Both the position numbers and the translations under genes were made by a program. Source: a virus. From it: 39,064 nucleotides of DNA. Every line of letters begins with the position of its first letter. Positions within the stretch are counted from its first letter, which is position 1. This document shows, piece by piece, positions 7,569 through 9,165 of the stretch. The notes beneath the pieces were generated by a model that had not been told where the DNA came from, searched no databases, and worked only from the letters and a program-made list of their open reading frames with translations. Location of the stretch: IMG/VR virus record IMGVR_UViG_3300020735_000021, positions 1 through 39,064 of that record. One strand, 5' to 3'.

Positions 7569-7597
7569 TTGACTTTCGCTAAATGATACACTATACT
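7569..7597 (+). promoter_or_regulatory. sigma70-type promoter of the tmRNA gene
   Basis: TTGACT at 7569-7574, a 17-bp spacer and TATACT at 7592-7597. The predicted start near 7604 is just upstream of the acceptor piece of the tmRNA. Confidence 0.85.
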
Positions 7598-7604
7598 AAA
7601 TATA

Positions 7605-7914
7605 TTGCTTGGTTGTTGAGGCGTAAAGAATAGACAGTTTGGACGGGAGTGCAAATCTCCCCACCTCCACCATAAGCACTAACGCATTAGCTGCACCAGA
7701 AATGCCGTATGCAGGGGAATGTAAGTCGAGTAGTGCTTATGATGGGGGTGTATAGGTTCGACAGGCTGTGATAAAGTTACGATTAGACTAAGTAAACTCG
7801 TAAATGCAACATATGCATCAAACGACAATGTTCCTTATTCAGCAATGAAAGTTGCTGCTTAATTAACTGAGTCTGCGGTCTGACAGGGAACCGTATTACC
7901 TAATCCCTGTCGCC
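7605..7914 (+). ncRNA. ssrA: circularly permuted two-piece tmRNA
   Basis: The gene has the permuted order of alphaproteobacterial tmRNA. The acceptor piece comes first: T-arm GGGAG-TGCAAAT-CTCCC (7645-7661), then the 3' acceptor strand CACCTCC (7662-7668), A and an encoded CCA (7670-7672). An excised loop follows, closed by an 11-bp inverted repeat (7671-7681 with 7731-7741). The coding piece begins at 7744 with GGGGGTG, which pairs with the CACCTCC of the first piece, followed by the GGTTCGACAGG D-analogue. CAGGCTGT (7762-7769) pairs with ACAGTTTG (7634-7641) to form helix P2. The tag frame ends at TAA 7860-7862; read from GCA 7806 it is ATYASNDNVPYSAMKVAA, or from GCA 7815 ASNDNVPYSAMKVAA. 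A stem of 8 bp closes the 3' end. With SmpB it would rescue stalled ribosomes and mark products for proteolysis. The mature ends are estimates. Confidence 0.92.
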
Positions 7915-7922
7915 TTATTTTT
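7882..7922 (+). terminator. 3' hairpin and T-run of the tmRNA
   Basis: GACAGGGA (7882-7889) pairs with TCCCTGTC (7904-7911), followed by a T-rich tract up to 7922. It may serve both as the last helix of the tmRNA coding piece and as an intrinsic terminator. Confidence 0.6.
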
Positions 7923-8118
7923 CCATTTGCATACCCTGAACATTGACGTATTCTAAAACTTTGAATTTGAAGGTTTCTGGTCTTTTCTTATACGCTCGTT
8001 TCATCATTTCGTTCGAACAAATATAAGAGTCATTGACTTTACCGTAATGACCGCCAACGTAGAAAAACTTCGCTTTGGTGTCGTACCAAATGTAAACGTA
8101 ACCTGTATAAATATGCAT
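7915..8118 (-). pseudogene. truncated GIY-YIG-like endonuclease fragment
   Basis: The minus-strand frame encodes 67 residues from ATG at 8118, eight bases behind GGGAG. It contains GYVYIWYD, then FYVGGHYG, matching the GIY and YIG blocks of GIY-YIG nucleases, and further residues (CSNEMMKRAYKKRP) resembling mobile T4-like phage proteins of this class. The frame stops at 7915 inside the T-run of the tmRNA 3' end, far short of the length of a working homing endonuclease and without the usual catalytic Glu and DNA-binding region. It is therefore most likely a remnant, cut at the tmRNA boundary. A short intact protein of unknown use cannot be excluded since the start and ribosome site are intact. 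Confidence 0.65.
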
Positions 8119-8189
8119 AGCTGTATCTCCCAACTGAGTATAGAGTCAGTGGATATTGGTAGTATCGCGACTGACATTCTATTTAGTAC

Positions 8190-8218
8190 TTGACTTTTTT
8201 TAACAAGTCAGGTATTAT
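8190..8218 (+). promoter_or_regulatory. sigma70-type promoter of tRNA-Arg
   Basis: TTGACT at 8190-8195, a 17-bp spacer and TATTAT at 8213-8218 (a TATAAT at 8216-8221 would need a 20-bp spacer). It would drive tRNA-Arg and, by read-through, the outer-membrane protein gene. Confidence 0.7.
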
Positions 8219-8226
8219 AATACTAA

Positions 8227-8303: not shown

Positions 8304-8338
8304 TATTATGTGTGTTTAACAAACGAAAAGGAAAAAAT

Positions 8339-8887
8339 ATGAAGCGTACAATCACTACTCTTGCTATTTTGGCTGCAGCAGTAACTTCAGCTGTTGCGTC
8401 AGATCTTCCTAGCAAGATTTCACCAGCTGCACCTGCACCAGTATTTACTCAGTCTAACTACTATGTTGGTGTTAATGCTGGTACAGATACTGCTACTAAG
8501 AAGATTTATTCTGGTGGCATTACTGCTGGTGCAACTGTCCTTCCATATCTTGCAGCAGAAGCTGCTTATGATTTCGGATACGCGAAGGATGCCGTTAAGG
8601 GTTATCATCAGAAGACAGATAGTCTTGCTCTTAACGTAATTCCTCAGTACAAGGTTTTTGGTACTGATTTTACTGCTTACGCTCTCGCTGGTGTAGGTTA
8701 CAAGTATGATGCTATCACTTCTAACACAACTAAGAATGACGCATTCTATAATGTTGGTGGTGGTCTCAAGTACGAGTTCGTCAAGAATATTGATCTTGAC
8801 GCTCGTTATCGTTATTCTGATGCTCTTAAAACAACTGATAAGAACTCAGATCAGCGTATCACACTTGGCGTAGACTACAAGTTCTAA
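8339..8887 (+). CDS. Omp25-like outer-membrane beta-barrel protein
   Basis: The 182-residue protein starts at ATG 8339 behind AAAAGGAAAA. It has a Sec signal (MKRTITTLAILAAAVTSAVA) cleaved before SDLPSK, an N-terminal Pro/Ala linker, and alternating beta strands (YYVGVNAGTDT, AEAAYDFGYA, TAYALAGVGYKYD, YNVGGGLKYEF, LDARYRYSD, ITLGVDYKF) ending in Phe, the signal for insertion by the Bam complex. This matches the small eight-strand barrels of the OmpA/Omp25 type common in Rhizobiales, where such proteins often begin with a DLP motif after the signal. The gene follows the tRNA and ends in its own terminator. Acquired host genes of this type may alter the cell surface, e.g. block superinfection, but this is inference. 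Confidence 0.8.
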   Translation: MKRTITTLAILAAAVTSAVASDLPSKISPAAPAPVFTQSNYYVGVNAGTDTATKKIYSGGITAGATVLPYLAAEAAYDFGYAKDAVKGYHQKTDSLALNVIPQYKVFGTDFTAYALAGVGYKYDAITSNTTKNDAFYNVGGGLKYEFVKNIDLDARYRYSDALKTTDKNSDQRITLGVDYKF

Positions 8888-8920: not shown

Positions 8921-8943
8921 AATTATTGATTGAAAGATACATT

Positions 8944-9165
8944 ATGATTCAAATGAATAGTAATTTCGTTGATGAAGTAGAAAAGCTTTGTCGTGCTAAA
9001 AATATGGACTACATCGATGCAGTAGTTCTTTGGTGCGAAAAAAATAAATTAGAAGTTGAATATGCTGCCTCGTTGATTAAAAAAGATCCTGCTATCAGAG
9101 AGAAGATTCAGGTCGAGGCGGAGAACCTAAACATTCTCAAGCGTGGAGCGAGATTGCCAATATGA
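8944..9165 (+). CDS. 33: late transcription coactivator, gp33-like
   Basis: The 73-residue protein starting at ATG 8944 lines up with the conserved part of T4 gp33: FVDEVEKL, then MDYIDAVVLWCEKNKLE (T4 has MSYLEATTAFLEEN), then IKKDPAIREKIQVEAENLNIL. T4 gp33 binds the flap of the RNA polymerase beta subunit and, with the sigma gp55 and the sliding clamp, directs transcription from late promoters. The C-terminus is short (KRGARLPI) as in gp33 of T4-like phages of cyanobacteria. Gene order supports the call: gp33, gp59 and gp32 lie close together as in T4. It overlaps the next start by four bases. No gp55 is in the window. Confidence 0.8.
   Translation: MIQMNSNFVDEVEKLCRAKNMDYIDAVVLWCEKNKLEVEYAASLIKKDPAIREKIQVEAENLNILKRGARLPI

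What the first reader, a model, noticed from the sequence alone, without database searches (positions are those of the whole stretch)
7605..7914. Phage-encoded circularly permuted two-piece tmRNA
Both pieces, the excised loop with an 11-bp inverted repeat, the seven-pair acceptor stem joined across pieces, helix P2 and a tag frame with stop can be read. Permuted tmRNA is characteristic of host alphaproteobacteria; a complete copy with its own strong promoter in a lytic T4-like phage suggests the virus supplies ribosome rescue, perhaps with a different tag, while it degrades the host genome.
Basis: partly seen in the sequence, partly recalled or inferred. Interest (0 to 1): 0.85.

Follow-up and report, generated by a model that had tools for sequence, protein, structure and literature searches.

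The report
Phage tmRNA with swapped tag cassette
A T4-like virus of bacteria carries its own two-piece ribosome-rescue RNA (a kind already known in related marine viruses), and its protein-tag half has been replaced by a mobile cassette that comes with a selfish homing-nuclease gene, which appears to be a new way of rewriting this RNA's tag.

Summary
Window 7605-7905 is a complete permuted, two-piece tmRNA gene of the alphaproteobacterial type: Rfam tmRNA_permuted 92.3 bits and alpha_tmRNA 73.1 bits, both over their cut-offs. It has a seven-pair acceptor stem with G3-U, a 71-nt spacer with an 11-bp stem, and a tag, ATYASNDNVPYSAMKVAA. A phage-borne two-piece tmRNA was published in 2022 for Melnitz, Mosig and related T4-like phages (PMC9004378), so by itself this is a new member of a known kind.

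Outside the given coordinates I found something I could not find described. Sibling phages (L009, L011) match the window up to the resume codon and again from the tRNA-Arg gene. Between these points the window carries a different, ~413-bp segment (7810-8222): a new tag, a new 3' structure, and the remnant of a convergent GIY-YIG homing endonuclease gene. The intact endonuclease exists in relatives. Every relative with enough flank (29 of 31 loci, not all independent) sits beside a permuted tmRNA, and in every locus measured its stop lies within 56 nt of the tag stop. I read this as a homing-linked tmRNA tag allele. The replacement is shown by sequence; homing is inferred.

The parts
7569..7597 (+). 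sigma70-like promoter TTGACT-17-TATACT of the tmRNA gene
   Evidence: 10 of 12 consensus matches; not proof of function
7605..7672 (+). acceptor piece: outer helix strand, P2 strands, T arm 7645-7661, acceptor 3' strand 7662-7668, ACCA 7669-7672
   Evidence: Rfam alignments, RNA fold, pairs across 49 phage tmRNAs
7673..7743 (+). intervening spacer expected to be cut out (71 nt, 11-bp terminal stem)
   Evidence: sequence and fold; in 49 relatives the spacer is 18-142 nt and mostly has a 9-11 bp stem
7744..7805 (+). 5' part of the coding piece: acceptor 5' strand GGGGGTG, D region, P2 strands, up to the conserved TAAAT before the resume codon
7806..7862 (+). tag reading frame ATYASNDNVPYSAMKVAA with stop; conserved core ASNDNVPYSAMKVAA
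   Evidence: ARAGORN; resume codon placed by alignment with relatives
7863..7912 (+). 3' structure: possible pseudoknot (TGCGGT 7874-7879 with ACCGTA 7890-7895) and a competing terminator-like hairpin 7882-7889/7904-7911 followed by a T run
   Evidence: hairpin in the fold; the pseudoknot is read by eye only
7810..8222 (.). replacement cassette: everything from just after the resume codon to just before tRNA-Arg
   Evidence: endonuclease-less siblings L009 and L011 align on both sides and carry ordinary 3' halves of about 84 nt between
7915..8118 (-). remnant (67 aa) of a convergent GIY-YIG homing endonuclease; internal deletion of ~367 bp removes the catalytic glutamate region
   Evidence: alignment with the intact 208-aa gene of L213; PHROG homing endonuclease E 6e-12 for the intact gene; I-TevI catalytic-domain fold
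8190..8218 (+). promoter-like TTGACT-17-TATTAT before tRNA-Arg, inside the cassette
   Evidence: absent from L009 and L011
8227..8303 (+). tRNA-Arg (TCT), right border of the cassette
8926..9165 (+). gp33-like late transcription factor, the conserved neighbour downstream of the tmRNA
   Evidence: PHROG 254, E 5.6e-15; same order in Mosig, HTVC008M and Melnitz

Best explanation
This is a genuine phage two-piece tmRNA gene. One precursor is transcribed, the spacer is removed by host tRNA-processing enzymes, and the two pieces pair through the acceptor stem and P2. The molecule is charged with alanine (G3-U present), works with the host's SmpB, rescues stalled ribosomes and adds a phage-specific tag ending in KVAA. 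The gene is an old resident of this phage group. Its tag half, however, was replaced by recombination with a cassette made of a new tag, a 3' structure and a convergent GIY-YIG endonuclease gene. The most likely driver is intronless homing: the endonuclease cuts tmRNA alleles that still have the uninterrupted TAAAT-GCAAACGAYAA resume site, and repair copies the endonuclease together with the tag that lacks this site. Because the permuted gene places all strands that join the two pieces upstream of the tag, the tag and its 3' structure form a terminal module that can be swapped without breaking the pairing. In this window the endonuclease has since decayed. Shown by sequence: the tmRNA, the replacement, the linkage and the decay. 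Inferred: charging, rescue, homing and the cut site.
For: tmRNA: Rfam and ARAGORN; fold z -4.0; paired variation in 49 phage tmRNAs. Old residence: 37 of 41 loci spanning the neighbouring genes have it (Rfam adds L040), with the same gp33-gp59-gp32 neighbours in isolates. Replacement: L009 agrees with the window up to TAAATG and at 100% for about 140 nt from 8223, with a different 3' half between; L011, L016, L082, L059 and L020 all stop aligning at exactly 7809. Transfer between lineages: L213 shares a 99% block (window 7771-8185) flanked by about 82% identity on the left and a diverged tRNA on the right, and its gp33 is 69% identical. Linkage: 31 endonuclease relatives down to 38% identity; all 29 with enough flank, duplicates included, are beside a permuted tmRNA and convergent with it, against 0 of 72 other phage tmRNAs. 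The endonuclease stop lies -25 to +56 nt from the tag stop in every locus measured. Resume site interrupted in 9 of 11 endonuclease-linked tags and 3 of 18 others, Fisher p 0.0013. Nuclease identity: PHROG 6e-12, I-TevI fold with probability 1.00, invariant GIY, YIG and Glu positions in 14 sequences. Tag core: at least 6 changes, all synonymous, P 2.8e-4.
Against: No cleavage, homing, expression or tagging data exist for any of these phages. Two endonuclease-linked alleles (L232, L242) keep GCAAACGA, so an interrupted resume site is not universal; the Fisher test treats related tags as independent. L210 and L215 have the same tag core without the nuclease. All endonuclease queries came from tmRNA-linked copies, so strict linkage may not hold for more distant homologues; Sinorhizobium phages have 43-49% similar N-terminal domains elsewhere. 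Pfam GIY-YIG is below its cut-off (15.8 against 22.6 bits). The structure model is of low confidence overall (mean pLDDT 56.7), and the fold match has a weak E-value (0.03).
Confidence: 0.78

Rival explanations
1. Ordinary phage tmRNA only: the tag half differs through normal divergence and generic phage mosaicism, and the endonuclease is an incidental selfish gene lodged in a tolerant gap next to RNA genes, as T4 SegB is between tRNA genes.
For: T4-like phages carry endonucleases near tRNAs (SegB between tRNA-Arg and tRNA-Ile, PMC2988022). Two linked alleles keep the uninterrupted resume site.
Against: The left border sits at the resume codon in five relatives and the nuclease ends inside the tmRNA 3' structure across 38-100% identity. 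0 of 72 other phage tmRNAs carry it. The 99% block spans tag and nuclease together.
Confidence: 0.2
2. The tmRNA mainly serves as an interfering RNA: a decoy that titrates host SmpB or overrides host tagging, with the KVAA tag giving tagged proteins another fate than the host tag would.
For: A tRNA-domain-only tmRNA like that of phage DS6A inhibits tmRNA (PMC4131195). No SmpB gene in 12 related records. The tag pattern is absent from genome contigs.
Against: All functional parts are kept, including the tag frame and stop, and the tag core changes only synonymously, which fits a translated tag. AA-ending tags are normal.
Confidence: 0.12
3. Non-functional relic of a host tmRNA captured by the phage.
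For: The 3' half has lost the GGAAACAGAA motif common in relatives; a terminator-like hairpin competes with the pseudoknot.
Against: Strong model scores, paired variation, an intact frame and resident status in 37 of 41 relatives.
Confidence: 0.05

Closest known systems
Two-piece tmRNA of Methylophilales phage Melnitz and Pelagibacter phages Mosig and HTVC008M (PMC9004378)
   Same: T4-like phages, alpha-type permuted tmRNA, same place upstream of the gp33-like late factor and near PhoH, exonuclease and gp59.
   Different: Melnitz and Mosig have a glutamine riboswitch, which Rfam does not find here; their tags are short (ANDNYVPVDYALAA, GEDNFALAA, ANFNEYALAA), and no endonuclease cassette was found.
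Alphaproteobacterial two-piece tmRNA (Rfam RF01849; Caulobacter ssrA)
   Same: Permuted order, acceptor stem and P2 joined across pieces, G3-U, ANDN-like tag start.
   Different: Phage-borne; tag has extra residues before SNDN and ends in KVAA; diverged 3' structure.
T4 SegB and other free-standing GIY-YIG homing endonucleases (PMC2988022)
   Same: GIY-YIG nuclease next to RNA genes in T4-like phages; expected to spread by cutting the nuclease-less allele and co-converting flanking DNA.
   Different: Linked to the tmRNA and not only to tRNAs, overlaps the tmRNA antisense, and its spread would replace the coded tag. No activity has been tested.
Genomic islands that integrate into bacterial tmRNA genes
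   Same: A mobile element brings a replacement 3' part of the tmRNA gene.
   Different: Islands use an integrase; here no integrase was seen but a homing nuclease, and the exchange point is the resume codon. This comparison rests partly on general knowledge.
Group I intron tmRNA genes with homing endonucleases (PMC11915505)
   Same: Homing endonuclease associated with a tmRNA gene.
   Different: Those sit in a self-splicing intron in the T-loop region; here there is no intron and the nuclease gene is convergent, outside the RNA except for the antisense overlap.

Membership tests
Permuted (two-piece) tmRNA | Score over the Rfam permuted tmRNA cut-off | tested here: met
   RF04321 92.3 bits against 47; RF01849 73.1 against 50
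Permuted (two-piece) tmRNA | Acceptor strand with CCA precedes the 5' acceptor strand, separated by a spacer | tested here: met
   CCA at 7670-7672, spacer 7673-7743, GGGGGTG from 7744
Permuted (two-piece) tmRNA | Alanine identity pair G3-U in a seven-pair acceptor stem | tested here: met
   present here and in 49 of 49 phage tmRNAs
Permuted (two-piece) tmRNA | P2 pairing between the two pieces | tested here: met
   P2a own-partner test 0 of 20,000; the P2b permutation test was negative, but P2b is in the fold
Permuted (two-piece) tmRNA | Tag frame ending in small hydrophobic residues and a stop | tested here: met
   ATYASNDNVPYSAMKVAA stop
Permuted (two-piece) tmRNA | Processing into two RNAs, charging and tagging in cells | not testable with these tools
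   needs RNA and protein from infected cells
GIY-YIG homing endonuclease (gene linked to this tmRNA allele) | GIY and YIG motifs with catalytic Glu in the intact gene | tested here: met
   G6-Y7, Y20-x-G22 and E69 invariant in 14 sequences; I-TevI top structural match; PHROG homing endonuclease; Pfam GIY-YIG only sub-threshold
GIY-YIG homing endonuclease (gene linked to this tmRNA allele) | Intact in the window | tested here: not met
   67-aa remnant, ~367 bp deleted relative to L213
GIY-YIG homing endonuclease (gene linked to this tmRNA allele) | Nuclease-less alleles have an intact target that is interrupted in nuclease-bearing alleles | tested here: inconclusive
   9 of 11 interrupted against 3 of 18, p 0.0013, but two exceptions and no cleavage data
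GIY-YIG homing endonuclease (gene linked to this tmRNA allele) | Biased inheritance in mixed infection | not testable with these tools
   needs isolates

The most novel reading that the evidence does not exclude
A dedicated family of homing endonucleases uses the resume codon of phage tmRNA genes as its target and, by homing, overwrites the proteolysis tag of the recipient phage with its own; the permuted gene order makes the tag a swappable terminal module.
Probability: 0.6. Interest if true: 0.8.

Novelty: new variant of a known kind. Interest (0 to 1): 0.62.

Why it matters
Phage tmRNAs are documented but their use is unknown. This locus shows that the tag is an exchangeable allele in natural phages, with a defined donor cassette, empty-site siblings and a nuclease candidate, so both the homing step and the effect of the tag can be tested directly. 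It would be a case of a selfish gene changing the message of a ribosome-rescue RNA, and it suggests one consequence of the circularly permuted gene order: the tag can be replaced without disturbing the tRNA-like part.

Tried and rejected
Riboswitch upstream or downstream, as in Melnitz: none in a permissive Rfam scan. SmpB supplied by the phage: none in 12 related records (several are fragments). Host identification through the tag: no match in genome contigs; the T-arm pattern matched only one metagenomic contig labelled Deltaproteobacteria; a class-wide search of Alphaproteobacteria was not possible without a genome handle. Direct Pfam assignment of the 72-aa ORF failed until intact homologues were found. 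Sequence search of the nuclease against PDB: no hit. Megablast of the window against phages: no match. The permutation test for P2b did not separate own from swapped partners. The second GCA (first codon of ASNDN, the ARAGORN reading of L090) as resume codon: rejected for the window because TAAAT directly precedes GCA 7806-7808, as in the relatives.

Full report
1. What is there. Window 7605-7905 holds a permuted tmRNA gene. Rfam's permuted and alphaproteobacterial models both score well over their cut-offs (92.3 and 73.1 bits) and ARAGORN agrees. The order is acceptor piece (7605-7672, ending CCA), spacer (7673-7743, 71 nt with an 11-bp stem), coding piece (from 7744). The seven-pair acceptor stem contains the G-U pair at position 3 that alanyl-tRNA synthetase needs (general knowledge); it is invariant in 49 distinct phage tmRNAs collected here, and variable acceptor and T-stem positions stay paired. 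P2a pairs each first piece with its own second piece better than with a swapped one (0 of 20,000 permutations); P2b did not pass that test. The folded precursor is 4 standard deviations more stable than shuffles and adds a 10-bp helix, 7605-7614 with 7786-7795. A sigma70-like promoter lies just upstream.

2. Where it lives. Genes around it are PhoH, exonuclease, gp33-like late factor, gp59-like helicase loader, gp32-like single-strand binding protein and T4-like baseplate proteins. The nearest named phages by gp6 are Caulobacter phage Cr30 (37%) and Pelagibacter phage HTVC008M (34%), so this is a distant, unnamed T4-like group; an alphaproteobacterial host is likely but unproven. HTVC008M, Mosig and Melnitz have a permuted tmRNA in the same neighbourhood. 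Among IMG/VR relatives that span the region, 37 of 41 have the tmRNA (Rfam adds L040). The tmRNA is therefore a long-standing resident, not a recent capture. The published survey of phages with two-piece tmRNAs (PMC9004378) settles that the kind is known.

3. The tag. The resume codon is GCA 7806-7808, preceded by the conserved TAAAT, giving ATYASNDNVPYSAMKVAA. A degenerate pattern for its main features has no match in 84,980 species genomes but 11 matching viral contigs with a related pattern. Among the five distinct alleles of the core ASNDNVPYSAMKVAA there are at least six nucleotide changes, all synonymous (P 2.8e-4 under random mutation), which suggests that the peptide itself matters.

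4. The replacement cassette. The closest nuclease-less sibling, L009, agrees with the window up to TAAATG and again, at 100% for about 140 nt, from 8223 onward into tRNA-Arg; in between L009 has an ordinary 3' half (tag ANDNNASRLALAA) where the window has about 413 bp of other sequence. L011 gives the same picture, and in five relatives the left border is the same base, 7809. The cassette holds the new tag, a changed 3' structure with a terminator-like hairpin, a minus-strand ORF and a new promoter-like site before tRNA-Arg. In contig L213 the same segment (window 7771-8185) is 99% identical while the 5' half of the tmRNA is about 82% identical, the tRNA is diverged and gp33 is 69% identical: the segment has moved between lineages.

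5. The nuclease. In L213 and L023 the minus-strand ORF is intact, about 208 aa. It matches PHROG homing endonucleases (6e-12) and Pfam GIY-YIG below threshold; an AlphaFold model, reasonably confident only in parts of the N-terminal domain, matches the I-TevI catalytic domain first (probability 1.00, E 0.03); GIY, YIG and catalytic-Glu positions are invariant in 14 sequences. In the window about 367 bp are deleted, leaving roughly the first 58 residues. A search for relatives found 31 viral loci, including duplicates, down to 38% identity. Every one with sufficient flank has a permuted tmRNA next to it, convergent (L228 and L234 are near-copies of L227 and L233; L241 and L246 are cut off). In every locus that could be measured the nuclease stop codon lies between 25 nt inside and 56 nt beyond the tag stop, so the nuclease gene ends inside or against the tmRNA 3' structure. 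None of 72 other phage tmRNA loci with enough flank has this nuclease.

6. Mechanism. The simplest account is intronless homing as known for T4 seg genes (PMC2988022). The tmRNA resume region TAAAT-GCAAACGAYAA is strongly conserved in nuclease-less alleles; nuclease-linked alleles mostly interrupt it with extra codons (ATY, AKK, NAI and so on): 9 of 11 distinct tags against 3 of 18, Fisher p 0.0013. Exceptions L232 and L242 and the non-independence of related tags keep this from being proof. All strands that join the two pieces lie upstream of the resume codon, so exchange at this point keeps the tRNA-like part intact; this is my inference from the layout. The nuclease later decays (window, L007, L247-L250) or may be lost (L210, L215).

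7. Novelty. Phage two-piece tmRNA: known. A homing-endonuclease-linked replacement of the tmRNA tag: not found in the open-access literature searched; subscription papers and preprints could not be searched. I rate the whole as a new variant of a known kind.

Noticed in passing
window 7673-7743: The spacer that should be cut out is nearly identical to that of L011 although the acceptor piece before it differs more (T arm and P2 strand changed), an unexpected conservation for a discarded stretch.
   Followed up: no
L207, L209, L233, L235, L243: ARAGORN misses these permuted tmRNAs although Rfam or direct reading shows them, so ARAGORN-based surveys of phage tmRNA undercount.
   Followed up: partly
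L210 and L215: Same tag core (AKTASNDNVPYSAMKVAA) without the nuclease, in a more distant phage group; possible loss after homing.
   Followed up: partly
window 8312-8887 (+): Small OmpA-like outer membrane beta-barrel protein encoded beside the tRNA-Arg gene (Pfam OMP_b-brl 6.9e-16); unusual cargo for a T4-like phage.
   Followed up: no
window 8190-8218: The cassette adds a promoter-like site before tRNA-Arg, which in L009 and L011 directly follows the tmRNA and is probably co-transcribed with it; L213 lacks this site.
   Followed up: no
L231 1978-2003: Here the nuclease frame runs about 25 nt antisense into the tag coding sequence itself.
   Followed up: no
L247-L250: Tag VAANDNRPAVSEAMRIAA would begin with valine (GTC) if resumed at the usual place, next to a truncated nuclease remnant.
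   Followed up: no
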